In this document: positions 1,515 to 38,330 of the stretch, piece by piece
Position numbering within the stretch: the stretch's first letter is position 1
Layout: each line of letters starts with the position of its first letter
NCBI RefSeq assembly: GCF_000807255.1
Contig: NZ_CP009268.1
Location: 4,122,384-4,186,383 of the forward strand
DNA length: 64,000 bases
From: Clostridium pasteurianum DSM 525 = ATCC 6013
Lineage (GTDB): Bacteria > Bacillota > Clostridia > Clostridiales > Clostridiaceae
Reading direction: 5' to 3'
The notes under the pieces: model-generated
What the model was told of the DNA's origin: nothing
Seen by the model: the letters and a program-made list of their open reading frames with translations, nothing else
Database searches by the model: none
Program-made: the position numbers and the translations under genes

Positions 1515-1961
1515 CTAATCAAGAGTTCGATTTTCCTCTAGCTTAAAAACTATTTTTCCTAATAAATCGTCTACAATACCATACTGGTTATCATCTTTTA
1601 ATAAGCTTTTTATAAGTAAGTCAAATTTACTATAAAGTTCCTCATCTCCCTCTACAATTTTCTTCCCCTTTTCTGTGAGATTAACATAATAAATTCTCCT
1701 ATCTTCATCAGATTGTTTCTTCTCTATTAGGTCCATTTTAGTTAATTTTTTAATTATTATAGAAATAGCTGGTTTTGTAAGTCCTAAAGCTTCAGCTATT
1801 TCAGAAAAATTGGGCTTTTTTAGATAATAAATAGTAGTTAAATAATAATAATCATTATTACTAAAATTTTTTAGTTCATTTTCTGATAAATGTGTATTTA
1901 AATTTTTAATTGACTCTCTCCATAAATAATTAGCTATAAATGCAAAGTTATCTTTAAGCAT
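1515..1961 (-). CDS. MarR-family transcriptional regulator
   Basis: A 148-aa winged-helix regulator. The helix-turn-helix is visible at about residues 50-75 (FSEIAEALGLTKPAISIIIK), followed by the wing with the MarR-typical DEDRRIYYVNLTEKG motif. AGGAGGGTTAT lies directly before the ATG. A perfect 42-bp palindrome lies 16 bp upstream, which suggests autoregulation. Divergently there is only a decayed FtsX-type permease fragment, so the regulator may have lost its original transporter target. MarR proteins act as dimers that usually repress and are released by small ligands; the ligand cannot be inferred. Confidence 0.93.
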   Translation of the reverse strand: MLKDNFAFIANYLWRESIKNLNTHLSENELKNFSNNDYYYLTTIYYLKKPNFSEIAEALGLTKPAISIIIKKLTKMDLIEKKQSDEDRRIYYVNLTEKGKKIVEGDEELYSKFDLLIKSLLKDDNQYGIVDDLLGKIVFKLEENRTLD

Positions 1962-1977
1962 ATAACCCTCCTAAAGC

Positions 1978-2019
1978 AAATTAGTTAAATAAATTTAATT
2001 AAATTTATTTAACTAATTT
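1978..2019. promoter_or_regulatory. 42-bp perfect palindrome, probable MarR operator
   Basis: AAATTAGTTAAATAAATTTAA is followed immediately by its exact reverse complement. It sits just upstream of the MarR gene start and contains overlapping TTAAATAAATTTAA-like half-sites, so two dimers could bind side by side. The role as autoregulatory operator is inferred from position and symmetry. Confidence 0.65.
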
Positions 2020-2159
2020 ATCATGTATATATCACTATGTCAAGCTATAACTAATTTTATCTTTTGTAAATTAAGTGCTAATAATTATAATAAATATTTA
2101 AAATGTAAATTTAAACTTGGTATCTAATTAGTAAAAACTTTAATTGATTGATGGAGTTA

Positions 2160-2497
2160 AAAAGATCTATGGAAGAAATTTCAAATATATTAATGTTACT
2201 TTTAATGCAGCTAAGTTCACAGAGTGGTCATGAGGGCTATTGGTATGTCCGGAGATCAATTAAAATAAAATGGTTTTAGTTGAAGCCGGAACTTATAGCT
2301 TTACCGACTCTTTAACCGAATGCATCTTAGGTACTTTACTGCAAAAGTTCCTAGTTACAAATTTACTTTCCCAAATGCATATTGTATGGGAATTTCCATT
2401 AGTATAAACAATTTTAATATTTGCTATTATTTTTATTATAACAGTGCTTTCTGTCATAAATCCATTAAAACGAATGAAAATGAATACAGCCGATTAA
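2160..2497 (+). pseudogene. Remnant of an FtsX-type ABC permease (C-terminal part)
   Basis: Fragments of one protein appear in shifting frames: RAIGMSGDQLK near 2233-2265, then from about 2270 MVLVEAGTYSFTDSLTECIL, LGTLLQKFLVTNLL, HIVWEFPLV, an in-frame TAA at about 2403, and TILIFAIIFIITVLSVINPL ending in TAD and a stop at 2497. The 'RAIGMS..QL..MVLVE' block is the cytoplasmic loop typical of FtsX/MacB permeases and the rest reads like the last membrane segments. There is no usable start, at least one frameshift and one internal stop. This fills the gap between the MarR gene and the ABC-2 operon; nothing else was seen there. Confidence 0.6.
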
Positions 2498-2526
2498 TCA
2501 AAACTTAAACATAAATCTTCAACAAT

Positions 2527-3603
2527 TTATGACTCCTTAGCAAAACTAGAATACCTTATACTTCCTGCAGTAAACAGTACTAAAATCATTAATATGATTA
2601 TAAATATATTTGGAAAAACTACCGATTTTTCTATACTGTCCATAGCCCAGTAAAATGGGGTAAACTTACCTAAAGCTGTACTTAAATCAGAGTGATTGCT
2701 AATACTATAAATGTATAAAAAGAACATAGTCATTGATAACAAAATAGAGATTAAAGAACTTGCTTGGTTGTCCTTAAATATCCTTATTACCATTAAAGAT
2801 AAACTTATTGATACCATACTCATCAATGCAATATTTATTATTAGCATCCAAAAATTTTGAAAATTATATTTAAAAACAAAGTTCATTATAATAAATGACA
2901 ATGTATACATAGATACCTGCACTGCTACCATAGAAAGATAAATACTTCCCATTATAGCATAGCCTTTATTTCCTGTAGACAAAAATCTCTCTAATATTTT
3001 ATCCTTTTTAAGCTTTAATAAATCTACACTTATATTAATTGAATAATTCATAATAAAAAACAGAATCATCAAAATAGGCACAAAGGAATCTGCACTTAAT
3101 AACCCTTTTTTCATATTATAGTCTACATAAATAATATTTTTATCCAATTCTTTTTGATTCTCTATAATTCTATTCTTTTCTAAAAGCTTTACCTTTAATA
3201 GGTTATTTAATTTAGCTTGTAAATTAGCTTCAAAAATCTGAGTACTATTTCCCTTTTCTATTTTATATGCATTTATAGTAGGTTTTATATTATTATCTAT
3301 ACTCTCCGAGAAATTTTCAGGAATTTCATATACTACGGAATAATTATAGTTTTTTAACCCTTCAACAGCTGTTTCTTTACTATAAAATACATTATTAACA
3401 CCTAAATCACTAGCTAACTGCTTTCCATAATTTCCTCCATCCATATTTATTATTGCAATTTCAATATTTAATCCCTTTTCACTGTTATTAACTAAAAAAT
3501 TAGTTAAAGCCACACATATTATAGGAAGCAAAAACATAATAGCTATATTTTTATAATCTTTTAAATACCTTTTACTATTGGCAAATACCATTCTAAAAAA
3601 CAT
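2527..3603 (-). CDS. ABC-2 type transporter permease
   Basis: A 358-aa membrane protein and second permease of the ABC-2 exporter encoded here. It has one N-terminal membrane helix (IAIMFLLPIICVALTNF), a long extracytoplasmic domain of about 150 residues, then about five helices in the C-terminal half (from SFVPILMILFFIMNYSI onward): the ABC2_membrane_3 layout. The start at 3603 (MFFRMVFANSKRY) is preferred over a longer frame reaching back into the upstream gene, because GGAGGAGGAATAAC precedes it. It is the last gene of the HK-RR-ATPase-permease-permease operon and probably forms a heterodimer with the permease just upstream. The substrate is unknown. Confidence 0.88.
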   Translation of the reverse strand: MFFRMVFANSKRYLKDYKNIAIMFLLPIICVALTNFLVNNSEKGLNIEIAIINMDGGNYGKQLASDLGVNNVFYSKETAVEGLKNYNYSVVYEIPENFSESIDNNIKPTINAYKIEKGNSTQIFEANLQAKLNNLLKVKLLEKNRIIENQKELDKNIIYVDYNMKKGLLSADSFVPILMILFFIMNYSINISVDLLKLKKDKILERFLSTGNKGYAIMGSIYLSMVAVQVSMYTLSFIIMNFVFKYNFQNFWMLIINIALMSMVSISLSLMVIRIFKDNQASSLISILLSMTMFFLYIYSISNHSDLSTALGKFTPFYWAMDSIEKSVVFPNIFIIILMILVLFTAGSIRYSSFAKES

Positions 3604-12127: not shown

Positions 12128-13387
12128 TCACTTACATTTTTGTAAGAAAAGACTGAATTTACTTCCCTTACCTAACAAAGAATCAACCATTATGCTTCCA
12201 CTCTGTTCTTCTAGTATCTTTCTAGAAAGATATAGACCTACACCAGAGCCTTCCTCTTCTTGAACCACGTCAGAATTACCTCTAAAAAATCTTTTAAAAA
12301 TTTTATTGAAATCTTCTTTTGCAATACCAATTCCATGATCTTCAATATCAATTCTTATATAAGAATTTAATTTAGTAACGTTTATGCTTATTTCATCATT
12401 TGCATAGGAATATTTTACTGCATTTTCAAGTACATTCAGTATTGCTTCCTTAGTCCATTTAACATCGTGATAAATAAAAATTTCCTCAATGGGATTAACT
12501 ATTATGTCAATATTTTTGTATAAAGCCTTTGAATATATACCCTCAACAGCCTTATATACAGTATCTTTTATAGATTTATTTTCTTTTTTTAGTTCAATCA
12601 TACCCACTTCAAGCCTTGATAGTTTTATAAGAGAATCCACAAGCCACTGAAGCTTTGCTGCCTCACTTTTAATTGTCATTAAGAATTCGTTTCTTTCCCT
12701 GGTATCCAAATTATTATCTTCAATTAGAAGTGAATTAAAAAGCTTGATAGACGCAAGAGGTGTCTTAATTTGATGTGAAATATCAGTAACCAATGCCTTT
12801 ATATTTGCTTTTTCTTCCTTTATTTTACCAATACTCAATTCAACCCTTCTTGCCATTTGATAAAACTGATTAGATATCTTTGATATAACTCCTTCTTCAT
12901 AATCCTCTATATTAATAGAATAGTTACCAATTATAATATTATCAATATTATTTGAAAGCTTTTTCAGTCTTTTTATAAAATACAAGCTAAAATAACTGAA
13001 AAGTATTGCAGATATAACTATCAGCAAAAGCAAAATAATAAAATCATTGATAATAAAACTTTTAAATTCTCTATTGAAATTATCATCATTCCATACTGCT
13101 GCTGTGTTATCGTAGCCATATTTTTTTAAAATATTTTCTCCATAATCCAAATCTTTTTTATTACTTTCTTTATTAAGTACTGATTTTACTATATCCGTTT
13201 CACTTTCAGGATACAACTTTGTAAGACTTCCTATTAATTGTCTGCTAGAATTAATACGTTCACTGTAAATTTTATTAACAGTATAATAATGTGTAAAAAA
13301 GATTAAAATCCACACAAAGAGAATACTGCCTATTAATAGTAGCAATAACTTTTTTAATAATGGTTCTTCTTTTATATAACTAATCAT
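12128..13387 (-). CDS. Sensor histidine kinase (VanS/PhoR class)
   Basis: A 419-aa kinase with two membrane helices (LLLLLIGSILFVWILIFF and FIILLLLIVISAILFSYF) enclosing an external sensor domain of about 85 residues. They are followed by a HAMP-like linker, HisKA with the phospho-His in TDISHQIKTPLAS, and HATPase_c with NVLENAVKYS, DHGIGI and GSGVGLYLS. ATG at 13387 overlaps the regulator stop as ATGA, the usual coupling; upstream GTG/ATG codons are in frame but would overlap more. Together with the regulator it probably controls the FtsX-type ABC genes immediately downstream. Confidence 0.93.
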   Translation of the reverse strand: MISYIKEEPLLKKLLLLLIGSILFVWILIFFTHYYTVNKIYSERINSSRQLIGSLTKLYPESETDIVKSVLNKESNKKDLDYGENILKKYGYDNTAAVWNDDNFNREFKSFIINDFIILLLLIVISAILFSYFSLYFIKRLKKLSNNIDNIIIGNYSINIEDYEEGVISKISNQFYQMARRVELSIGKIKEEKANIKALVTDISHQIKTPLASIKLFNSLLIEDNNLDTRERNEFLMTIKSEAAKLQWLVDSLIKLSRLEVGMIELKKENKSIKDTVYKAVEGIYSKALYKNIDIIVNPIEEIFIYHDVKWTKEAILNVLENAVKYSYANDEISINVTKLNSYIRIDIEDHGIGIAKEDFNKIFKRFFRGNSDVVQEEEGSGVGLYLSRKILEEQSGSIMVDSLLGKGSKFSLFLQKCK

Positions 13388-14076
13388 CCTTTTACACATC
13401 CTTCTATCCACATATATCCTATACCTCTTATATTTTTTATATACTTAGGCTGTGAAGGCATATCTTCTATTTTTTCTCTCAGCCTTCTTATATTTACAGC
13501 AATAGTATTCTGATCTACAAAATTACCTTCAACATCCCACAACTGGCTTAAAAGCTGTTCTTTAGTTATAATTTGCTTTGCATTATCCATTAAATATTTT
13601 AAAAGCTTAAGTTCAGTTTTACTTAAGACTAATTCCTTGTGATTTTTGAAGACCTTCATGTCCTTTACAGAAAAAACTATATCTCCAGAAGATAATCTTT
13701 CCCCATATTCTTCACTAGAATTTCTTCTCAACAGAGCATTTATCTTTGACATCAGCACCATAAGACTGAAAGGTTTAACTATGTAATCATCTGCACCCAA
13801 ATCAAGTCCTGTAACAATATCAGTCTCTTGATCACAAGCAGTAAGAAAAATAATAAGTACATTGCTCTTTTTTCTAACTTCACTGCAAAAATCAAAGCCA
13901 TCACCATCAGGTAGCCCTACATCAAGTAAAATAAGATCAACATTGTTATTATTAAATATTTTCCAGGCCTCTTCAACTGTTTTAGCTGAAAACACCTTAT
14001 ATCCTTCCTTGCTCAACTTAAAACTAATACCTCTATTTAAAGATTTATCATCTTCTACCAGCAAAATATTTTTCAT
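13384..14076 (-). CDS. OmpR-family response regulator
   Basis: A 230-aa response regulator. Its receiver domain has EDD near residue 9, DLILLDVGLPDGDG for the phospho-acceptor and VKPFS for the conserved Lys, and it ends in an OmpR-type winged helix (KTELKLLKYLMDN, VDQNTIAVNIRRLREK, IRGIGYMW). The start MKNILLVEDD at 14076 matches the family. A frame runs 30 bases further upstream into intron A sequence and should not be taken as native. The group II intron nest ends 6 bases before the ATG, so the gene has no nearby native ribosome site unless intron A is removed (see findings). Confidence 0.94.
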   Translation of the reverse strand: MKNILLVEDDKSLNRGISFKLSKEGYKVFSAKTVEEAWKIFNNNNVDLILLDVGLPDGDGFDFCSEVRKKSNVLIIFLTACDQETDIVTGLDLGADDYIVKPFSLMVLMSKINALLRRNSSEEYGERLSSGDIVFSVKDMKVFKNHKELVLSKTELKLLKYLMDNAKQIITKEQLLSQLWDVEGNFVDQNTIAVNIRRLREKIEDMPSQPKYIKNIRGIGYMWIEGCVKG

Positions 14077-14081
14077 ACAAT

Positions 14082-14181
14082 GTCGAGTAGACAACTCGAC
14101 TTTCACCTCTCTTTCATTAAAGTGAGGGCTAGTCTATTGCCCCTCACAGAACCCAACGTGCCCTACTAAGGCATTAGGCTC
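14082..14181 (-). ncRNA. Domains V and VI of group II intron A
   Basis: Domain V is the 33-base hairpin at 14181-14149, starting GAGCC (with the catalytic AGC triad) and ending GGTTC. It is followed by a stem GTGAGGG...CCCTCAC and a terminal hairpin GTCGAG/CTCGAC ending at the 3' splice site. The catalytic core therefore looks intact. Confidence 0.8.
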
Positions 14182-14198
14182 TTCATATATTCCTTACA

Positions 14199-15001
14199 TT
14201 ACAACCAAATATTTGCATAAATTTTAGGTTCTGATATGGGGTGTTTCTTAAGAAGATACTGATAGCGAGCCCAACTAAGATAGGCTCTTTGGCTTCTTCG
14301 TGTAATCACCTTATACAGTGCAACTTTTACAAATCTATAGAAATTCAGTAATCCTCGATAGTTGCCTGATATTCCATAATAAGCATAATGTCCTTTTATC
14401 TTTCGGTTTAGAAGCTTTATTGTGTCTGATGGTTTCCCATGTATGTTGCTTTTCAGCCATTCCTTTACCTTTAGTTTCTTGGCTTTCAGCTTCTTTCTAC
14501 TGGTTCTGTGTTGAAGTCTATATTTACCTGTTCTTGTCTTACCATTTATATGCGTAAAACCTAGAAAGTCAAAGGTATCTGTTTTGCCGTCCTTGCTATT
14601 TTCAGCAGCAAATCTTCCAAAAGGAATTATTTTACTTTTATCTCTTGCAAGTTCAAGTCCAAATTTCTTAAGTCTTCCTGCCAGAGATTTATAGAAGCTT
14701 TCAGCTTCTTTCTTATACTGAAAGAAGCATACAAAATCATCTGCATAACGCACAATATATGCATCACCTTTGCAATGTTTCTTTACTACAATATCAAACC
14801 ACATATCCAGTACATAGTGGAGATACACATTAGCACAAACAGGTGATATTAAGCCGCCTTGCGGCGTTCCCTTGTCGCTTTCATAAAATTTCATATCTTC
14901 TATAATACCAGCTTTTAGAAACCTTTTAGTATAGCGTAGAAAGTTCTTGTCCTGGATATCATGTTCTAGAAATTTTATTAACCATTCATGATCTACATTA
15001 T
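14199..15001 (-). CDS. ltrA: Group II intron A reverse transcriptase/maturase, C-terminal exon
   Basis: Second half of the intron A protein. After the split the sequence continues NVDHEWLIKFLEHD and carries GTPQGGLISP, the catalytic YADD in IVRYADDFVCFF, the thumb/X maturase domain (FDFLGFTHI, RRSQRAYLSW) and ends NIWL. Joined to the other part (20640-20157) the frame is 1,287 bases, exactly 429 codons. An apparent N-terminal extension up to 15125 is not real coding sequence: it is read from the 3' end of intron B. The expected junction codon gives GFF-DNVDHEW, the usual motif of these enzymes. Confidence 0.88.
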
Positions 15002-15085
15002 GGTTGGTAGAAGGAAGCCTTGGTTTTATCCTTGTACTTCCAGCCCCAATCAGAACCCGGCGTGCAGTTTTTCCGCACCGGGCTC
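15002..15085 (-). ncRNA. Domains V and VI of group II intron B
   Basis: Domain V is 33 bases (15085-15053), GAGCC...GGTTC, with a strong stem CCGGTGC/GCACGCCGG. The DVI-like stem and 3' tail run to 15002. The domain V fold matches the group II consensus, so ribozyme chemistry is plausible. Confidence 0.8.
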
Positions 15086-15111
15086 CCCAAAACAATTCAC
15101 AATTATCATCG

Positions 15112-15626
15112 TTAGACATCTGCATGTATTAATTCTGGATATGGTAATTTAAACCATTCTTTAGTACTTAGATAAGACCAATACATTTTATGCCTTTGGC
15201 TCCTTCTTCTAAGCGACCTAATCCATTGATTAACAACTTCTTCACGAATGTATACAAGTTTATTTCTACAGTGGTATAAGGAAAAGTATTGATAGAAACC
15301 TTTCAACATACTTATTAGTTGCTTCTGCTGGTCTCTTCTTTTCCAGTGACTATGCCCTTTAAGCCATTTATGAGTTTTATCCAGAAACTTTCTACAACTC
15401 TTTACTGTAGGTTTTCGAATTAGTGCAAATTGTCCATTTGTACCAACTCCACTTATATGCTTAAAGCCTAAGAAATCAAATGTTTCCGGCTTTTCGCCAT
15501 ATTGGGCTCTTCTTTCTCTTGCATATCTCCCAAAAGAAAGAAGTCTCGTCTTTTCCTCCGCAAGTTCTAAACTAAACTTGTTCATTCGGTACTTTGAATA
15601 TTTCTGAAACTTTTCTGCATCTCTTT
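15112..15626 (-). pseudogene. ltrA: Group II intron B reverse transcriptase/maturase, C-terminal part (cut by transposon)
   Basis: This part continues from KRDAEKFQKYSKYRMNKFSL through the X/maturase domain (FDFLGFKHI, RRSQRHKMYW) to a stop at 15112, just ahead of domain V. In the ancestral gene it joined FADDYVACFQY of the other half. Adding 19659-18885 and 15626-15112 gives 1,290 bases, exactly 430 codons, which confirms the junction. Because the transposon lies between the halves, no complete intron B protein can be made from this copy. Confidence 0.88.
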
Positions 15627-15632
15627 TGTATT
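15627..15632. repeat. Target-site duplication, left copy (TGTATT)
   Basis: TGTATT at 15627-15632 recurs at 18885-18890, immediately outside the TGTTA...TAACA ends of the transposon. Removing one copy and the element restores the intron B reading frame. Confidence 0.88.
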
Positions 15633-15674
15633 TGTTATTAGGCATTTTACTTAAGCTAAAAAACATTCAAAAAA

Positions 15675-15751
15675 GTCAAATTATTATAGACTTAATTTAT
15701 AGGTCAGATTAAATAATCTGACTCAAAAAGAATAAGATTATTTAATCTGAC
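15675..15751. repeat. Left-end transposase-binding repeats
   Basis: Three related motifs lie at the left transposon end: GTCAAATTATTA at 15675, the near-palindrome GTCAGATTAAATAATCTGAC at 15703-15722, and GATTATTTAATCTGAC at 15736-15751. They resemble the right-end motifs and are likely binding sites for the DDE protein. Confidence 0.65.
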
Positions 15752-15797
15752 GATAATTAGTAAGGAGAAAATTTTTTAATTATGAGAAGAAATAATA

Positions 15798-16370
15798 ATG
15801 ATAAATATAGTAAAAATGCCTTACGGAATAAAAAAATACAATAAACTTTGTAAGTTTAATCAATTTCCAAGTAAATATGGATGCGAAGCATGTGGATTTG
15901 AAGGTAAGCTGTACAGACATGGATTTTATTATAGAAACTTAATTACCCTTAAAGGTGCATACAAGATAGTCATCCTGCGTTGTAAATGTCAATCCTGTGG
16001 TAAAACCTATTCTCTTATACCCAGTTTTATTATTCCTTATAGGCAATATGCTTATGAAGTTATTCTAACTTCTATTATTATGATGCTAAAACTAGGTTAT
16101 TCCTTTAGTAAAATATTAACTCTTATAAAATCTCTTAATATTAACTACTCATCTCTTAATACAACAGATCTATCATTTTGGAAAAATAGGCTAGTAAGCT
16201 CATTATCGAGTATTCGTTTATTTTTTGCACAGTATAAATTCTATAATTCTAACATAAATAGCAAATTACCTATTGATATCATAAAAAAAATTATTATCTT
16301 TTGCCGTTTAAGGCACGATTTTAACTTGGATTATTTTTTACACATGCCTAAGTATTTCTTTTGTAAATGA
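15798..16370 (+). CDS. Zinc-ribbon protein of transposon (DUF6431-like)
   Basis: A 190-aa basic protein with an N-terminal zinc ribbon: CEACGFEG near residue 29 and CKCQSCGK near residue 62, so two Cys pairs about 33 residues apart. The rest is helical and rich in Ile/Leu/Tyr, without a recognised catalytic motif. Proteins of this type occur next to DDE transposase and ExeA-like ATPase genes in Firmicute elements, and DNA binding or target choice is a reasonable guess. The ribosome site is weak (AAGGAG lies 30 bases upstream), so the start is uncertain. An ATG at 15782 is in another frame and soon stops. Confidence 0.7.
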   Translation: MINIVKMPYGIKKYNKLCKFNQFPSKYGCEACGFEGKLYRHGFYYRNLITLKGAYKIVILRCKCQSCGKTYSLIPSFIIPYRQYAYEVILTSIIMMLKLGYSFSKILTLIKSLNINYSSLNTTDLSFWKNRLVSSLSSIRLFFAQYKFYNSNINSKLPIDIIKKIIIFCRLRHDFNLDYFLHMPKYFFCK

Positions 16371-16569
16371 TAATTTAATAGGTACAAATTAGATCTATCT
16401 TTTTTATCAAATTAAATACTTCACACTTTTTTTAATGTCTTTTTATATCAATCTTGTCCTCATTTCTCTTGTTCTATCTAAAATTTTTGTATAATTCCAC
16501 ACAACCTTTAACGGTTTAAATGTCGATTTTAAGTCATAATTATTAATAAAAATAGGAGGTTGATAATCA

Positions 16570-17832
16570 ATGATATTAAAAGAATTTAATCAAAAGATAG
16601 CATTATTTCGTTATTCTCTGATTGCACCCATTATAACCAATACATTTACTCAGACTTCTGTAAAAGATTATTTAGCAGAAATTGCAGCAAAGTCTTATAC
16701 ACTGCCTAACGGCAAGAAAAAAGAGTATTCTCCTGCAACAATCAAAGGATGGCTAGTTCAATATAGGAAATATGGTATTGATGGCTTATATCCAAAATCA
16801 AGAGCTGATAAAGGTACTTCCAGAAAAATTTCAAATGAAACCAAAGAATTTATTATAAACAGTAAATTAAATTCACCTAAAAAAACTGCCAAGTACATAT
16901 ATCATGAAGTTATAGCTAAAGGTTTTGAAAGTGAAACTAGTATTTCCCTGTCAACAGTAACTAGATTTATAAATAAGGCTAAGATAGGTTCTAAAAAGCT
17001 TGTACCTGATGATAGAAGAGCCTTTGAATTTGAGTTTTCCAATGAATGCTGGCAATCTGACGTATCTGTAGGTCCTTACCTTACTATAGAAGATAAAAAA
17101 TTCAAGACTTATATTATAGCTTTTTTAGATGATTCCAGTAGAGTCATTGTAGGATGCAAAGCATTTTTTAAAGATGATCTTTTATCTCTTATGTCTGTAT
17201 TTAAAGATGCGGTAGCATCAAAGGGAATTCCTAAAAAAGTTTTCGTTGATAATGGAAAGATATATAAAAGTGAGCAATTTCATTTGATTTGTGCAGCTCT
17301 TGGTAGTATTTTAAGTTTTGCAAGACCATATTCCCCTCAATCTAAGGGCAAAATTGAAAGATGGTTCCAAACTATGCAAAAACAATGGATGAATTCAATT
17401 AATTGGAATGATTTTAAATCTATAGACCTTTTAAATGAATCCCTGTCGGGTTATGTTAACAGTTATAACAACACTATACATTCCTCAATAAACAAAAAAC
17501 CAATTGATAAGTACATGTCTAATGTTGAAAATATAAGATTTATTGATTCTAAAACTGAACTAGACTATTTATTTTTATATAAAGTACTCCGTACTGTAAA
17601 AAATGACTCCACAGTATCTATAGGTACAAAAATATTTGAAGTACCACTAAAATATGTTGGTGACAAAATAAATATACGCTATGATCCATCATCTATTGAT
17701 AAAGCTTATATTTTTTCACAGGATGGTAAACTTGAAGATACTATTTTCCCTGTTAAAAAAATTGATAATTCAAAAATCAGAAGAACTAACAATACTAATT
17801 CTGTTGATTTTTCTGCCTTTGAAGCTAACTAA
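16570..17832 (+). CDS. DDE transposase (Mu/TniA/IS481-like integrase core)
   Basis: A 420-aa transposase. N-terminal helix-turn-helix DNA-binding domains (about 1-130, with YSPATIKGWLVQYRKYGIDG) precede an rve/RNase H-like core. The catalytic residues are Asp in CWQSDVSVG, Asp in VFVDNGKIY and Glu in QSKGKIERWF; the last two are 35 residues apart (D-35-E). A C-terminal beta-barrel-like region follows (about 340-400). AGGAGGT lies before the ATG. It is followed after 15 bp by the AAA ATPase gene, the arrangement seen with TniA/TniB, TnsB/TnsC and MuA/MuB. Confidence 0.9.
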   Translation: MILKEFNQKIALFRYSLIAPIITNTFTQTSVKDYLAEIAAKSYTLPNGKKKEYSPATIKGWLVQYRKYGIDGLYPKSRADKGTSRKISNETKEFIINSKLNSPKKTAKYIYHEVIAKGFESETSISLSTVTRFINKAKIGSKKLVPDDRRAFEFEFSNECWQSDVSVGPYLTIEDKKFKTYIIAFLDDSSRVIVGCKAFFKDDLLSLMSVFKDAVASKGIPKKVFVDNGKIYKSEQFHLICAALGSILSFARPYSPQSKGKIERWFQTMQKQWMNSINWNDFKSIDLLNESLSGYVNSYNNTIHSSINKKPIDKYMSNVENIRFIDSKTELDYLFLYKVLRTVKNDSTVSIGTKIFEVPLKYVGDKINIRYDPSSIDKAYIFSQDGKLEDTIFPVKKIDNSKIRRTNNTNSVDFSAFEAN

Positions 17833-17847
17833 CCGGAGGTTGATATT

Positions 17848-18654
17848 ATGTATAAAGCTTTTTATGGCTTAACTTTTGATCCTTTTGATAAAAATCTTGA
17901 CTTAAAATACAGTTTTAAATCTGAGGATTTCTCTAAAGCAATGAATAGATTAGAATTTTTAAAATCTGTTTTAGGGATTGGCGTTATTACTGGAGAGCCT
18001 GGAGTTGGTAAGTCTTTCTTGCTCCGCAATTTTGTAGATTCACTAAATCCAAATTTATATAAGTGCGTATACATTCCTATTTCCACTTTAACTGTTATGG
18101 ACTTCTATAGAGCATTATGCGATGGTCTTGGAATAATTCATGCTCAGAAAAAAGTAACTATGTTTAAGCAAATACAAGAGTCTATATACACTTATAGCCA
18201 CAGTAAAAATGTAATTCCAGTTATTATAATTGATGAATGTCAATTTTTAAGCAATTCCATTCTTGATGATTTAAGAATAATATTTAATTTTCATATGGAC
18301 TCAAAGAATTATGCTATGTTAATTCTTTCAGGTCAACCTAATTTTTTACTTCAACTCAGCAGGCAGGTCCATGAAGCACTACGTCAACGAATCATAATGA
18401 ATTATTGCTTAAAAGGGCTAACGCATGATGAATGTAAGCCCTACATAACTTCTATGCTAAAAGCCGCAGGCTGTTCAGAACCAATTTTTACTGATGATGC
18501 TTTTGAACTCATTTATTCAAGCACTAATGGAGCTATAAGACCACTAAATTCTCTAACGAGAATGTGCCTTATCTCTGGTGCTAATGAAAGACTTACTTCT
18601 ATTAATTCAGATACAGTTTATAAATCTCAGAGTGAAATTGATCTTACAATTTAA
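17848..18654 (+). CDS. ExeA/TniB-like AAA ATPase of transposon
   Basis: A 268-aa ATPase. The N-terminal MYKAFYGLTFDPFDK is typical of ExeA-like proteins. Walker A is GEPGVGKSF, Walker B is VIIIDECQFLS, and an arginine-rich sensor region RQVHEALRQRI follows. In transposons of this type the ATPase binds target DNA and activates the transposase, as MuB and TniB do. CGGAGGT precedes the ATG and the gene is coupled to the transposase. A hairpin terminator follows. Confidence 0.9.
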   Translation: MYKAFYGLTFDPFDKNLDLKYSFKSEDFSKAMNRLEFLKSVLGIGVITGEPGVGKSFLLRNFVDSLNPNLYKCVYIPISTLTVMDFYRALCDGLGIIHAQKKVTMFKQIQESIYTYSHSKNVIPVIIIDECQFLSNSILDDLRIIFNFHMDSKNYAMLILSGQPNFLLQLSRQVHEALRQRIIMNYCLKGLTHDECKPYITSMLKAAGCSEPIFTDDAFELIYSSTNGAIRPLNSLTRMCLISGANERLTSINSDTVYKSQSEIDLTI

Positions 18655-18661
18655 AATTTTT

Positions 18662-18690
18662 TACACTGCTTATTCTGAGCAGTGTTTTTC
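18662..18690 (+). terminator. Terminator of transposon genes
   Basis: ACACTGC pairs with GCAGTGT across TTATTCTGA and is followed by TTTTC, 8 bases after the ATPase stop. Confidence 0.75.
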
Positions 18691-18750
18691 TATGCCTATA
18701 TTTATTGACCAATTTTAGAATTTTATACATTGTGGATATTGTGGAGAAAG

Positions 18751-18876
18751 GGTTATTTAATTTGATTTTTGAGACTTAATTTGCCATTAGTAAGATTATT
18801 TAAACTGATTTTTTACCACATTATTACTAATTTTAGGCTGAAATAATTTGACTTTTTAAGGATTAAATAATTTGAC
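18751..18876. repeat. Right-end transposase-binding repeats
   Basis: Four related sites share one orientation: GGTTATTTAATTTGA (18751), GATTATTTAAACTGA (18794), AAATAATTTGAC (18841) and GATTAAATAATTTGAC (18861). The right end holds more sites than the left, an asymmetry common in Tn7-like ends. Confidence 0.65.
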
Positions 18877-18884
18877 ACGTAACA

Positions 18885-19659
18885 TGTATTGGAAGCAAGC
18901 CACATAGTCATCAGCAAACCTTATCAGGTATGCTTCGCCTTGTGCATATGTTTTATATTTCTTTGCAAACCATAAATCTAAAACATAGTGAAGATAAATA
19001 TTTGCAAGTATAGGGCTGATTGGTCCACCTTGAGGAGTTCCTTGTGTATTTATTGTAACTACTCCATTAATCATTACTCCCGCTTTTAGCCATTTCCCTA
19101 TCATATTAATTATTACAGGGTCCGCTATTCTCAGCTTTATCATTTTCATAAGCCACTGATGGTTTATATTATTAAAATATCCTTTAATATCAGCCTCGTA
19201 TATAAATCTTACTTTCTTCTTTACTATGCATTCTCTTAGTGTTTTGAGTGCTTGATGAGGATTTCTTCTTGGTCTGAAGCCATATGAGAAATCCATAAAT
19301 TCCTGTTCATATATGGACTCAAGAATTCTTGCTACCGCACGTTGTACAAGTCTATCTTCTACAGTTGGAATGCCTAATGGTCGTGTTTTTCCATTACCTT
19401 TTGGTATTTCTACACGCCTTACCGGCGGTGCTTTATATTTCTTTTCTTTCATTCTGCTCCATATATCTTTTACTCTTTCATCAATATTACATTCAAATTC
19501 TAGAGTCGTCTCTCCGTCCACACCACTTGATCCTTTTCTATTCATCATTTTCCATGTTTCTTTTAGAAATTCCGGAGTTATAATATGAGCAAGTGATGTA
19601 AATACTGCTTTCCTGTCTTTACGAGCTTTAATTGCTATCTCATTCAATTTTGTTGACAT
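18885..19659 (-). pseudogene. ltrA: Group II intron B reverse transcriptase, N-terminal part (cut by transposon)
   Basis: This part starts MSTKLNEIAIKARKDRK after AGAGGT. It holds the RT0-RT5 blocks: GSSGVDGE, RPLGIPTVEDRLVQ, DFSYGFRP, EADIKGYFNNINHQWL, GTPQGGPISP, and FADD in RFADDYVACFQY, where it stops at the transposon. The last few codons of the open frame (MLRVKLFNP) are read from the transposon end. The 775 bases up to and including one target-site copy join in frame with 15626-15112. Confidence 0.88.
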
Positions 19660-20156
19660 ATCTATCTACCTCTGTTTGTGTAGTTTATGTTTCCTTGCTG
19701 AGAGTTTATTTTGTCCTGTCGCTTCCCCATGTACGTGGCTTTCCCACGCTCCGAGTACTACCAACAGGTCCGACTCCCGCCACAGCTTCCGCTTGCTTGT
19801 GGATGGTCCTTTCGGCTTGCGTACTCTACGTTTTGTAAAGACCATGACGGGTCTCCCGGGTTCCTTGACAATTCCATTTCATCCATGCCATGCTCTCAGA
19901 CCCCGCCGGAGTCTCCATTTCCCTCGCCATTAACAGGAAACTACTATAGCCTTCCAAGTATTCGACCTTGTCGGCCTCCGGACGTACTAACGAGGCTCAA
20001 TCGCTTCACTTGCGTTACGGCCTAGACTCGCTCTGTCTACGCTTAGTCTGTGTCGTTACCTTCACAAACCCAAGACTCGATTTCAGGTGAGGTGGCTTAC
20101 CTCTTTCCTGAGTTGGAATTTCACCAACTGAAATTGCCCGGCTTAGCCCGGCGCAC
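19660..20156 (-). ncRNA. Group II intron B 5' region (domains I-IV)
   Basis: About 500 bases of GC-richer, stem-rich sequence from the 5' end GTGCG to the reverse-transcriptase start, including CCGGGCTAAGCCGGGC and many short dyads. The small open frames seen on the other strand here are not genes. Base composition differs plainly from the AT-rich surroundings, as expected for an incoming ribozyme. Confidence 0.75.
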
Positions 20157-20640
20157 CAAAGAATCCTTTAATATCGGCATCCACAATAAAGTTAATTCTC
20201 TTAGTCATGATTATTTGATTTACTTCTCTAATTGCATCGTGACAACTTTTACCTTCCCTAAACCCATAAGAGAAATCATAAAATTTATTTTCATAGATTT
20301 GGTCAAGTATCTTCCTCATTACTCCTTGAACAAGCTTATCTTCATATGATGGAATTCCAAGAGGTCTAAGCTTATCACTACCTGCTTTAGGAATGTACGT
20401 CCGTCTAACTGCCTGTGGTTTATAACTAAAATTCTTCATTCTTGCTAGTAGATTATCTATATTTTCTTCTAGCTGTTCTCCATAGGTTTCCTTGTTTACT
20501 CCGTCAATTCCCATAGCCTTTCCACTTGTCTGTTTTATGTGTTCCATAATCAAACTTTCTTTGTTGACATAGTGCATTATGGTCTGTACTTTATTATGCT
20601 TTTCTGCTTGTAATGCTATTTCTTCAAACGCATTTGCCAT
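20157..20640 (-). CDS. ltrA: Group II intron A reverse transcriptase, N-terminal exon
   Basis: This part starts at MANAFEEIALQAEKHNK behind GGAGGTGG. The frame is open 42 bases further upstream without a ribosome site. It contains GKAMGIDGVNKETYG, RPLGIPSYEDKLVQ, DFSYGFREGKSCHDA and VDADIKGFF, where intron B interrupts. The open frame then reads GAPG and a stop from intron B. The protein continues at 15001. If intron B is spliced, a complete 428-aa maturase is possible; otherwise the product lacks its catalytic YADD. Confidence 0.87.
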
Positions 20641-21137
20641 TGTCTTCTGCCACCTCCAGTGTGACCAATGTTTTATTTTCAAAACGGCTTATATGTTTGC
20701 CCCTTTCCTCCACTTTCGTTACAAGCTTCTTCGGTACTATGAGCAAATCCGACTCCTTGCATACCATTTCTATCACCTTGGATGAAATGCTCCTTGTGTA
20801 ACAAATACCCTAACGGGAATATGCAAGGTCTCACAGGTATGCCATGTGTAACTATCTTATGCTCGCCGTGCTCTAAGACCCCGATGGAACCTACTTGTTC
20901 TTGCCCTTTACGACCAAGTATTATTACCTGCTACCGAGGTGAGGGTATCGGCTTCCATTCTATATAAACTAACGAGATTCAATCACTTCACGCTTTCGCA
21001 TTACGGCTCGCATAGTTTCTTACCTACGCTTAAACCTAGCCTCACGGCTTCGGCTCCAAGGCTGGATAACGGCGGTTGGCTAGACCTTACCGTGTCGGCT
21101 TCTCACCAACTATACACCTGGCACCGAACTGTCGCAC
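20641..21137 (-). ncRNA. Group II intron A 5' region (domains I-IV)
   Basis: About 500 bases from the 5' end GTGCGACAG at 21137 to the reverse-transcriptase start. It has typical group II blocks such as AGTACCGAAGAAGC and GGGGCAAACATA near the ORF and GC-rich dyads. No protein gene is supported on either strand. Confidence 0.75.
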
Positions 21138-21149
21138 CACCCAATTACA

Positions 21150-21180
21150 ATTATAGCATAGCAATATAACAGCAACCATA
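21150..21180 (-). promoter_or_regulatory. Possible promoter of the response-regulator operon upstream of intron A
   Basis: On the minus strand TATGCTATAAT (21160-21150) is a good extended -10 element with a weak -35 region. It ends only 12 bases before the intron A 5' end. A start about 7 bases downstream would leave a 5' exon of only a few bases, so either another promoter lies further upstream or the intron is poorly placed for splicing. Confidence 0.45.
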
Positions 21181-21221
21181 AGACAAAAGTACTAGATAAA
21201 TAAAATAAAAATATATAAAAC

Positions 21222-21274
21222 AACTGGTGTAAGTAGATTTAATACTATTTTTAATAAATCTACTTACACCAGTT
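21222..21274 (-). terminator. Terminator of the MFS exporter gene
   Basis: The 19-bp arm AACTGGTGTAAGTAGATTT is perfectly complementary to 21256-21274. It lies 24 bases past the MFS stop and is followed on the minus strand by TTTTATATATTTTTATTTT. It also isolates the intron-bearing operon from read-through. Confidence 0.85.
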
Positions 21275-21298
21275 ATTATCTGAATAAAAATTTTTTCA

Positions 21299-22519
21299 TT
21301 AAATATTATTTATAAAAGCTTTCTTCTGCACTAATACCCAACCTATTAAACTAATTCCCCCAATAATTATATACATAAATCCCATTGTAAAAATTCTATT
21401 TCCAGAACTTAAAGAGATAAGCATCATACCTATACTTCCCATAATCGTATAGGAAAAACTCATAAGTGATGAGGCTGTGCCCGTGTCACTCTGCTGTTGT
21501 TCAAGTATCAAATTAGTGCTTGGTGGTCTTATTATATTTCCACCCAAAGTAGCAGGCAAAATTGATAATGCAAATAACCAAGGTGAAAATCTTCCTATAG
21601 TGATAATTAATATACCACTTATAATTATTATTGCAAAGGAAGTCATAATTATAAGTGTATTTTTACAATAAGTTGATATTCTCATATAAAATAATGGTGC
21701 CAGTACTGAAAATATAGCATTAAATGCATAGAAATAACTATACACCTGTTCACTTAATCCAAAACCATCTATATAAATATAAGAAGATACAGAAATATAT
21801 GCTAATAGAGGCAGCATCTGAATTGCAAATATTACTAATAAAACTGTATATCTAGGATTTTTAATTACAACCCCTATTCTTGCGACCGTTCTGAAAATAT
21901 TTTCATTACTATGACTTGGAATTGTCTCCTGCATCAAAATACCGCCTATTAAAGCTATAACTCCCACAATAGACAATATCCAAAATACTCCGTGCCAAGA
22001 GAAAAGTTTAAGTATTACAGCACCAATAACCGGTGCAATAACTGGTGCCAGCATTGCCATAGACTGTACAACTGCCAATATAGCTACACGCTTTCTACCA
22101 TTGTAAGAATCTTTTATAGTTGCTACTGATACAGAAACAACTGCCCCACTGCCAATTGCTTGTAAAATTCTAAATATAATAAGCATATGTACGGATCCCG
22201 CTAGAGCACATAGTGTACTTGACAAAGTATAAATACTAAGTCCTGTCAACAATATGGGCCGTCTTCCATACTTATCACTTAAAGGACCCCATAAAAGCAT
22301 TCCAACTGCGTAAAATATAAAAAATAAAATTAGAGTCATGTTTAACAATCCAATAGTAGTTTGGAAACTTTCTACCATCCGTGGAAGTGCTGGAAGATAT
22401 AAATCTGTAGATAGAGGAACAAATGCACTTAAAAAAGCAATAAATATTACAAATCCTCTACTTCCTAAATATTTTTGTGCCTTTATACTATCATTATCCA
22501 TTTTTTCTTCTGTAATCAT
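21299..22519 (-). CDS. MFS drug-resistance transporter, Bcr/CflA type
   Basis: A 406-aa 12-helix MFS protein. The N-terminal LSAFVPLSTDLYLPALPRM and the motif A loop GPLSDKYGRRPILLTG are characteristic of the Bcr/CflA (drug:H+ antiporter-1) branch, as is RILQAIGSGAVVSVS. It probably exports small hydrophobic compounds using the proton gradient. It stands alone, with its own terminator and no adjacent regulator. The start MITEEKMDNDS has only a moderate ribosome site, and MDNDS six residues on is an alternative. Confidence 0.92.
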   Translation of the reverse strand: MITEEKMDNDSIKAQKYLGSRGFVIFIAFLSAFVPLSTDLYLPALPRMVESFQTTIGLLNMTLILFFIFYAVGMLLWGPLSDKYGRRPILLTGLSIYTLSSTLCALAGSVHMLIIFRILQAIGSGAVVSVSVATIKDSYNGRKRVAILAVVQSMAMLAPVIAPVIGAVILKLFSWHGVFWILSIVGVIALIGGILMQETIPSHSNENIFRTVARIGVVIKNPRYTVLLVIFAIQMLPLLAYISVSSYIYIDGFGLSEQVYSYFYAFNAIFSVLAPLFYMRISTYCKNTLIIMTSFAIIIISGILIITIGRFSPWLFALSILPATLGGNIIRPPSTNLILEQQQSDTGTASSLMSFSYTIMGSIGMMLISLSSGNRIFTMGFMYIIIGGISLIGWVLVQKKAFINNI

Positions 22520-38101: not shown

Positions 38102-38129
38102 GTTACTTGTAATAATAATATACGAATGT

Positions 38130-38297
38130 TAGAGATAGAGGCGCGATGCTTAAGAGTACCTTTGTGGAGATAAGCACTATGAAACAATGTGAAAGGAATC
38201 ATCGCCGAAGTTATATAGTTAATGCTTTGAGACTATATTGCTGGTTGTGCATATAATATATGTATAACTGTCACAATTTTGTGGAGAGCTATCCTGA
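38130..38297 (+). ncRNA. Lysine riboswitch (L box) aptamer
   Basis: The five-helix L-box layout is present: P1 arms GATAG (38134-38138) and CTATC (38289-38293), the conserved AGAGGCGCGATGCTTAAGAGTA block, AGGAATCATCGCCGAAG, GCTGGTTGTGCA, and ACTGTCACAATTTTGTGGAGAG before P1 closes. It regulates lysine synthesis or transport genes; here asd lies directly downstream. Binding of lysine should favour the terminator at 38331-38368. Confidence 0.93.
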
Positions 38298-38330
38298 GCA
38301 ACTTTTATTCTTATGTAATTTGTGTGAATA

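What the first reader, a model, noticed from the sequence alone, without database searches (positions are those of the whole stretch)
14082..21137. Three-level nest: a transposon inside a group II intron inside another group II intron
Seen directly: intron A's reverse-transcriptase gene is cut after DADIKGFF by a sequence starting GTGCG and resumes at NVDHEW 5,155 bp later; the inserted intron B has its own domain V and reverse transcriptase, itself cut by a 3,252-bp transposon with a 6-bp target duplication. The arithmetic closes: A and B without inserts are 1,901 and 1,897 bp, and the two maturase genes rejoin to exactly 429 and 430 codons. Twintron-like nests are known, but a nest of two introns plus a DDE/AAA transposon in one locus is rare and gives a clear relative order of insertion (A, then B, then transposon).
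Basis: partly seen in the sequence, partly recalled or inferred. Interest (0 to 1): 0.85.

Follow-up and report, generated by a model that had tools for sequence, protein, structure and literature searches.

The report
Nested introns homing to gene starts
In a clostridial genome, a mobile self-splicing intron whose targeting guide matches the ribosome's own start-site probe has been invaded by a second intron that aims at intron enzymes, and that one by a transposon.

Summary
The nest is real to the base: intron A (14082-21137, minus) holds intron B (15002-20156), which holds a 3252-bp transposon (15633-18884). A natural uninterrupted copy of A in the same genome is B's empty site. Such nests are a known kind.

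New is why two layers sit where they do. A belongs to a small clade whose exon-binding site EBS1 contains UCACCU, the anti-Shine-Dalgarno of 16S rRNA. Of eight members, all six with a readable 5' flank follow a Shine-Dalgarno-like GGTG, and all seven with a readable 3' flank end 5-6 nt before the start codon of unrelated genes; 0 of 12 resolved outgroup copies do. An orthologous empty site confirms this for the second copy. Domain VI carries an invariant GAGGUG, perhaps a replacement ribosome-binding site (inferred).

B's closest relative also cuts a reverse-transcriptase gene of another intron, at the homologous codon; a third relative shows this on its 3' side only. The transposon layer looks ordinary.

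Nine paper searches showed no ribosome-site-homing intron lineage. Splicing and translation were not tested.

The parts
14082..21137 (-). Group II intron A (outer), GUGCG...CUCGAC, 7056 bp with inserts, 1901 bp without
   Evidence: Rfam D1-D4 and D5-D6; second copy A2; ends shared by the A-clade
21138..21142 (-). IBS1 / Shine-Dalgarno-like GGGTG, last bases of A's 5' exon
21150..21155 (-). TATAAT (-10-like) box, 7 nt upstream of GGGTG
20936..20943 (-). EBS1 loop of A, CUCACCUC (contains UCACCUC, as in the 16S anti-SD)
20955..20973 (-). Internal loop of A with a candidate EBS2 (UUAUA); weak
20157..20682 (-). 5' part of A's RT/maturase gene, up to B
   Evidence: TIGR04416 positions 8-135, scanned as ORF 20143-20682, which reads a few codons into B
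14199..15001 (-). 3' part of A's RT/maturase gene, after B
   Evidence: TIGR04416 positions 136-352, RVT_1 and GIIM, scanned as ORF 14199-15125
15002..20156 (-). Group II intron B, GUGCG...CCAACC, 5155 bp with transposon, 1897 bp without
   Evidence: Rfam; natural empty site A2
19956..19969 (-). EBS1 hairpin of B (loop GUCGAAUA)
18885..19659 (-). 5' part of B's RT gene
   Evidence: TIGR04416 4-222, scanned as ORF 18856-19659
15112..15632 (-). 3' part of B's RT gene
   Evidence: ORF 15112-15666, no Pfam family; same residues in the uninterrupted RT of G129
15633..18884 (+). Transposon TGTTA...TAACA, 3252 bp
   Evidence: ten copies compared
15627..15632 (.). Target duplication TGTATT, left copy (right copy 18885-18890)
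15798..16370 (+). DUF6431 protein of the transposon
16570..17832 (+). DDE transposase (rve, Mu-transpos_C)
17848..18654 (+). AAA ATPase of the transposon
14149..14181 (-). Domain V of A
14082..14148 (-). Enlarged domain VI of A (arms GUGAGGGGC and GUCUACUCGAC with 46 nt between)
14104..14109 (-). SD-like GAGGUG inside domain VI, invariant in the clade sequences aligned
15053..15085 (-). Domain V of B
13384..14076 (-). Response regulator gene whose ATG lies 5 nt after intron A

Best explanation
The nest was built in three steps, two of them targeted. (1) Intron A retrohomed into the ribosome-binding site of the response-regulator gene: its EBS1 (UCACCUC) has the sequence of the 16S anti-Shine-Dalgarno, so its natural targets are Shine-Dalgarno sequences, and it inserts between SD and start codon. 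Splicing would rejoin SD and start; in unspliced RNA the GAGGUG carried in the enlarged domain VI could act as substitute SD, with the domain VI end as folded spacer. (2) Intron B, from a lineage found at the F-D^N codon of group II intron RT genes, then homed into A's RT gene (in domain IV, outside the catalytic core). (3) A multicopy DDE/AAA transposon then landed in B's RT gene. Shown: boundaries, order, EBS1-IBS1 complementarity and covariation, SD and start-codon context, conserved GAGGUG, homologous RT position for B. Inferred: that homing by these pairings caused the insertions, that splicing occurs (A perhaps helped in trans by A2's uninterrupted RT), and that the internal SD works.
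For: EBS1-IBS1: 101 of 108 pairs over 18 introns; permutation mean 61.8, maximum 84 of 20000. A 16S-end pattern that includes the anti-SD matches ten places in the genome. A-clade: 6 of 6 readable 5' exons end in GGTG; 7 of 7 readable 3' exons reach a start codon 5-6 nt on, opening ORFs of 74-507 aa of unrelated kinds. Control: 0 of 12 outgroup copies with a resolved 3' end, from seven genomes, of 30 loci given. Only 27 of 311 [AG]GGTG sites in 137,664 background bases precede an ORF start in this way. Orthologous empty site for A2, TTTAGGTG^GTAATATG. Four A-clade RTs form one branch, 100/100. B: both flanks of the window and G129 copies, and the 3' flank of G580, meet at TIGR04416 135/136, in RTs that are only 27-38% identical to each other where compared. 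Transposon duplications.
Against: Eight A-clade introns in about three clusters of near relatives. A and A2 pair at 5 of 6, not 6. No orthologous empty site for A itself, only a 47% identical homologue with GGGGTGATTTTATG. EBS2 is not established (within-clade permutation p = 0.31). The start-codon context could reflect survival of harmless insertions rather than targeting. A promoter scan found no -35/-10 pair at A. The open fold of domain VI frees GAGGUG fully in A, A2 and G205C35 only. The B lineage rests on three loci, one with a non-RT 5' flank; B129 pairs at 4 of 6. More distant B relatives (G819, G878) are not in RT genes. No RNA data.
Confidence: 0.8

Rival explanations
1. A-clade introns insert wherever EBS1 finds GGTG, and selection keeps only copies in 5' leaders, where they do not break proteins; there is no start-site targeting beyond the EBS1 motif.
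For: EBS1-IBS1 pairing is a general rule in the 18 introns tested; RBS sites are 16 of 98 [AG]GGTGA and 7 of 25 GAGGTGA sites in background DNA.
Against: 7 of 7 against a background of 9-28% needs strong selection; related introns with other EBS1 sequences persist elsewhere and none of 12 resolved copies sits at a start. EBS1 still equals the anti-SD.
Confidence: 0.3
2. The GAGGUG in domain VI is not a ribosome-binding site but a mimic of the 5' exon: it pairs with EBS1 in cis and regulates splicing or re-targeting.
For: Exact complement of EBS1 CACCUC; invariant in six distinct sequences; mostly paired inside domain VI in the predicted main fold of all but UBA4916, and there two thirds paired as well.
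Against: Its distance to the start codon, with the last hairpin folded out, is 8-9 nt in all seven members (counted), which an SD would need and a cis mimic would not.
Confidence: 0.35
3. The enlarged 3' end is a class-B 3' extension behind domain VI (as reported for Bacillus B.c.I4), not an insertion within domain VI.
For: The GUGAGGGGC...CCUCAC hairpin can be read as a short domain VI followed by about 40 nt or more; extensions of about 50-70 nt are in print (PMC4028801, passage).
Against: Outgroups with a short domain VI have the same two arms (GUGAGG and CUACUCGAC) around a simple loop, and both arms are invariant in the clade sequences aligned.
Confidence: 0.2
4. The nest is a chance pile-up of unrelated insertions with no targeting logic.
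For: The transposon's target duplications share no obvious motif.
Against: A's and B's positions recur in relatives at other loci.
Confidence: 0.05

Closest known systems
Thermosynechococcus elongatus twintrons (F3 introns in F1 introns; TeI4g cut by an insertion element) (PMC2882425, passages seen)
   Same: An intron family homing to a conserved site in the RT ORF of other introns; an insertion element in an intron RT gene
   Different: [quoted passage not shown] here B has its own (broken) RT and its lineage is found at the F-D^N codon of RTs only 27-38% alike, and all three layers are in one locus
Methanosarcina acetivorans nested introns (PMC4424553, passages seen)
   Same: Repeated site-specific homing of introns into introns
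   Different: [quoted passage not shown] here the outer intron sits at a gene's RBS and a DNA transposon is the innermost layer
Group IIC introns at transcription terminators (PMC4424553, passage seen)
   Same: A lineage specialised on a generic expression signal rather than one gene
   Different: IIC introns use terminator motifs; A's clade uses a Shine-Dalgarno sequence read by EBS1
Azotobacter intron at the groEL termination codon (PMC4465626, passage seen; Michel et al. 2007 seen only as a reference)
   Same: Insertion at a translation signal
   Different: Stop codon of one gene versus RBS of unrelated genes
Class B introns with 3' extension, B.c.I4 (PMC4028801 and PMC4424553, passages seen)
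   Same: Extra sequence near the 3' end
   Different: Here it appears to lie between the two arms of domain VI and carries an invariant SD-like hexamer
C.te.I1 of Clostridium tetani (PMC3919590, passages seen)
   Same: Start codons of downstream ORFs tied to D5/D6
   Different: ORF-less, alternative splicing by several D5/D6 copies

Membership tests
Group II intron (A) | Domain I and D5-D6 found by covariance models | tested here: met
   RF02005 113.5 bits; RF00029 38.6 bits, below gathering 40 but E 5.8e-5 in place
Group II intron (A) | Intron-encoded RT/maturase | tested here: met
   RVT_1, GIIM, TIGR04416 on the pieces apart; natural copy A2 362.9 bits against cut-off 300
Group II intron (A) | EBS1-IBS1 pairing | tested here: met
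   5 of 6 pairs
Group II intron (A) | Splicing in vivo or in vitro | not testable with these tools
   No RNA data
Group II intron (B) | D1-D4, D5-D6, RT, empty site | tested here: met
   141.3 and 42.3 bits; A2 as empty site; RT gene cut by the transposon, uninterrupted relative in G129 367.6 bits
Twintron | Intron inserted in intron | tested here: met
Twintron | Inner intron splices before or apart from the outer | not testable with these tools
   B's RT gene is broken; no second close B was found in the genome
RBS-homing A-clade (defined here) | Anti-SD EBS1 (UCACCU) | tested here: met
   6 of 6 with readable domain I, UCACCUC in five, UCACCUG in G621
RBS-homing A-clade (defined here) | Insertion between SD and start codon | tested here: met
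RBS-homing A-clade (defined here) | EBS2 pairing with the -10 box | tested here: inconclusive
   within-clade permutation p = 0.31
IS481 transposase (transposon) | NCBIfam score above cut-off | tested here: not met
   169.2 bits against 224
Class B 3'-extension introns | Extension after domain VI | tested here: inconclusive
   Outgroup arms argue for insertion inside domain VI

The most novel reading that the evidence does not exclude
The A-clade is a ribosome-mimicking retroelement: guided by an anti-Shine-Dalgarno EBS1 it homes to ribosome-binding sites just behind promoters, and its domain VI is a two-state switch. One fold (arms paired) is splicing-competent and hides the internal SD; the other (two local hairpins) breaks domain VI, presents the SD at 8-9 nt effective spacing and lets the invaded gene be translated without splicing.
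Probability: 0.25. Interest if true: 0.88.

Novelty: new variant of a known kind. Interest (0 to 1): 0.72.

Why it matters
Group II introns are known to specialise on terminators, attC sites or single genes. A lineage that uses the ribosome's own recognition sequence as its targeting guide would have a general way to enter almost any gene where protein is not damaged, and might stay compatible with translation by carrying its own ribosome-binding site. It makes testable whether intron splicing can gate translation start in bacteria. The B lineage, found at a codon that intron reverse transcriptases must keep, would be a clear case of a parasite of parasites.

Tried and rejected
Named relatives of A: the one scan of genome contigs gave one close relative, UBA4916 (84%), and one distant fragment. 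Viral contigs: no relative of A's or B's RT, no match to two clade DNA patterns. Plasmids: RT relatives of A in 4409 records, all below 60% identity; of B three, below 60%; domain I of A none. Phages: six RT matches, all below 60%. Class-wide DNA pattern for the domain VI end: own genome only, 1 of 391; the pattern cannot match G843 or G621, and G205 is not in the list of genomes drawn. Order of G843: 1 of 4, G843 itself. Class of G621: 0 of 37 at E 1e-150, a limit that G621's own truncated copy (5.9e-149) also misses.

EBS2 pairing with TATAAT looked attractive for A, A2 and G621 but fails a within-clade permutation (p = 0.31); over all 18 introns p = 0.001, uncorrected for relatedness. A TATAAT box 11-13 nt upstream of the junction occurs exactly in 4 of 6 (within one mismatch in 5 of 6) against 0 (3) of 87 background genes; it was noticed first and tested afterwards, on a small mixed background, so it is a lead only. 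A promoter scan of 21000-21400 found two sites against 1.8 expected, neither at A.

Two-state domain VI: MAFFT misaligned its middle, so no covariation count was made. Energies favour the arms-paired fold in five of six distinct sequences (by 2.0 to 6.8 kcal/mol) and the other fold in UBA4916. In the forced open fold GAGGUG is free in A/A2 and G205C35, in five of six bases in G205C65, in two of six in UBA4916, and paired with neighbours in G843 and G621.

Rows left out: the EBS1 test uses 18 introns with clear 5' ends, picked by eye from the loci fetched; the outgroup control resolves 12 distinct 3' ends, from seven genomes, of 30 loci given; the tree holds 16 of 23 RTs asked for (7 not extracted by the script, G205C65 among them), and the broken RT genes of A, B, G621 and G709 were not put in. 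The background includes loci of the clade itself.

Host name: no tool names it. The label class B for these introns is recalled too.
Full report
The observation. The window lies at 4122384-4186383 of a single-contig genome of 4352101 bp. On the minus strand a group II intron A begins GUGCG at 21137 and ends CUCGAC at 14082. Rfam models place its D1-D4 at 20869-21103 and D5-D6 at 14082-14183, and B's at 19891-20121 and 15002-15087. A search of the genome with the nest found a second copy of A, A2, which runs through without interruption: the match jumps from window 20157 to 15001 with no base between. This natural empty site fixes B at 15002-20156. Ten copies of the transposon were compared; all share the ends TGTTATTAGG and CGTAACA; eight are flanked by a 6-bp repeat, one by 7 bp, one by none. 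The window copy is 15633-18884 with TGTATT on both sides. The order A, B, transposon follows from the nesting.

Inside the transposon. It codes a DUF6431 protein, a DDE transposase with rve and Mu-transpos_C domains, and an AAA ATPase. The transposase scores 169.2 bits against IS481 (cut-off 224), so I do not name a family. The duplications share no obvious motif; I regard this layer as ordinary transposition.

Where intron A sits. A ends 5 nt before the ATG of a response-regulator gene (230 aa), A2 5 nt before the ATG of a PRC-barrel gene. This led to A's relatives. Searches of 206 family genomes, 398 phylum genomes and the named genome collection gave six more introns with RTs 72-84% identical to A2: two in G205, one each in G843, G621 and G709, and one in MAG UBA4916. 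Four clade RTs that could be used (A2, UBA4916, G205C35, G843) form one branch with 100/100 support. Seven of the eight introns have a readable 3' flank, and in all seven the intron is followed by A plus 4-5 nt and then ATG (six) or GTG (one) of an ORF of 74-507 aa. The genes are unrelated: response regulator, PRC-barrel protein, IS200-like transposase, MazE-like protein, HTH regulator, MurJ, methyltransferase. Six have a readable 5' flank, and all six end in GGTG (A GGGTG, A2 AGGTG, G621 GGGGTG, the others GAGGTG). Of outgroup introns, 12 distinct copies (48-55% RT identity, seven genomes, 30 loci given) had a resolvable 3' end; none opened into an ORF of 60 aa or more at 3-9 nt.

Empty site. 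In G003 the likely orthologue (71% identical) of A2's gene has no intron and reads TTTAGGTG^GTAATATGTATAAG, with a similar upstream stretch; A2's flanks read TTTAGGTG | intron | ATTGTATGTATAG. So A2 lies between the SD core and the start codon of a gene that has both without the intron. For A itself only a 47% identical homologue is at hand (GGGGTGATTTTATG).

How it finds the site. In an alignment of 18 domain I sequences, the EBS1 loop pairs with the last six bases of each intron's own 5' exon: 101 of 108 possible pairs, against a mean of 61.8 and a maximum of 84 in 20000 permutations. The permutations do not correct for relatedness, but outgroups with quite different loops (CAAUUG, GGGACG, UGCCUG, GACCCA, CACAGC, UAAGCG, UACACA, AAUUGG) each fit their own exon at 5 or 6 of 6. 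In the A-clade the loop is [CU]UCACCUC (G621 UUCACCUG). A pattern for the 16S rRNA 3' end that includes the anti-SD, GGNTGGATCACCTCCTTTCT, matches ten places in the genome (that this is the 16S end is recalled). It contains the same UCACCUC. So the guide of this intron has the sequence of the ribosome's anti-Shine-Dalgarno. In 137,664 background bases 27 of 311 [AG]GGTG, 16 of 98 [AG]GGTGA and 7 of 25 GAGGTGA sites precede an ORF start at 4-8 nt. Seven of seven is therefore more than EBS1 alone predicts, by targeting or by selection.

Domain VI. In outgroups with a short domain VI it is a simple hairpin with arms such as GUGAGG and CUACUCGAC; G875 has 69 nt and G592 and G666 about 120 nt. In the A-clade both arms are kept and 46-58 nt lie between them. 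Within this stretch GAGGUG is invariant in six distinct sequences while its surroundings change. With the arms paired, GAGGUG is mostly buried. In an alternative fold two local hairpins (GUGAGG:CCUCAC and GUCGAG:CUCGAC) stand on either side of it, 8-9 nt from the start codon if the last hairpin is not counted. The predicted difference favours the first fold by 2.2 (A), 2.0 (G843), 4.3 (G621), 5.5 and 6.8 kcal/mol (G205), while for UBA4916 the second is the minimum; but in the second fold GAGGUG is really free only in A, A2 and G205C35, nearly so in G205C65, and partly or wholly paired in UBA4916, G843 and G621. I infer, without proof, that GAGGUG can serve as substitute SD in unspliced RNA; the switch is a weaker guess. 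Its match to EBS1 is an alternative reason for its conservation.

The -10 box. TATAAT ends 11-13 nt upstream of the junction exactly in A, A2, G843 and G621, with one mismatch in UBA4916 and two in G709; of 87 background genes with an SD none has it exactly there and three have it with one mismatch. This was seen before it was tested and the sample is small; a sigma-70-type scan finds no promoter pair there. It could mean promoter-proximal homing, or an EBS2 that reads the box, but the EBS2 test is negative within the clade.

Where intron B sits. B cuts A's RT gene at the F-D^N codon; A's two RT pieces align to TIGR04416 up to position 135 and from position 136. The closest relative of B (94% over 263 residues), in G129, is itself inside a group II RT gene, again up to 135 and from 136. 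That outer RT is 38% identical to A2's over 128 residues, the alignment ending at the same FF/YF. A relative in G580 (75% identical to the G129 protein) has an RT from position 136 on its 3' side, 29% identical to A2's and 27% to the outer RT of G129, but a membrane-protein-like frame on its 5' side, which may be a recombinant or an assembly join. Relatives at 63% (G819) and 52% (G878) of the G129 protein are not in RT genes. B thus looks like an intron that lives on intron RT genes; three loci are few.

Function of the nest today. A's RT gene is cut by B and B's by the transposon. A2's RT, 97-98% identical to A's pieces, is uninterrupted and might serve A in trans; no second close B was found in the genome. 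Whether the response-regulator gene is translated through splicing, through the internal SD or at all is not known.

Known or new. Twintrons and an insertion element in an intron RT gene are known. I saw no description of an RBS-homing or anti-SD-guided group II intron in the listings of nine searches of the open-access library (for some only the top 10-25 of up to 196 papers were listed). Subscription papers such as Michel et al. 2007 are not in it, and I saw passages only of PMC2882425, PMC4028801, PMC4465626, PMC4424553 and PMC3919590. I rate the finding a new variant of a known kind.

Noticed in passing
L069 about 2255 (G709:C5): The A-clade RT gene of G709 breaks off in the YADD motif at a GTGCGCC sequence, apparently another intron and so an independent twintron; the contig ends inside it. 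Not tested with Rfam.
   Followed up: partly
L034 (G000:C1:1477311-1481952): One transposon copy is itself interrupted by about 1.4 kb; the two matches overlap by 5 bases of the query, as a 5-bp target duplication would give.
   Followed up: no
L027 (G000:C1:696687-699942): This transposon copy has no target duplication, as if formed by recombination between copies.
   Followed up: no
L098 (G580:C28, about 1616-3504): B relative with an RT gene on the 3' side only and a membrane-protein-like frame on the 5' side.
   Followed up: partly
L066, L087 (G592) and L075, L084 (G666): Introns at 48-52% identity have a domain VI of about 120 nt without start-codon context.
   Followed up: partly
window 21202-21294: Long imperfect inverted repeat between the Bcr/CflA-type MFS gene and intron A, possibly a two-way terminator.
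   Followed up: no
window 38128-38299: Lysine riboswitch (114.6 bits).
   Followed up: no
L014 (G000:C1:976050-976233): Short stretch 69% identical to part of A's RT gene; nature not examined.
   Followed up: no
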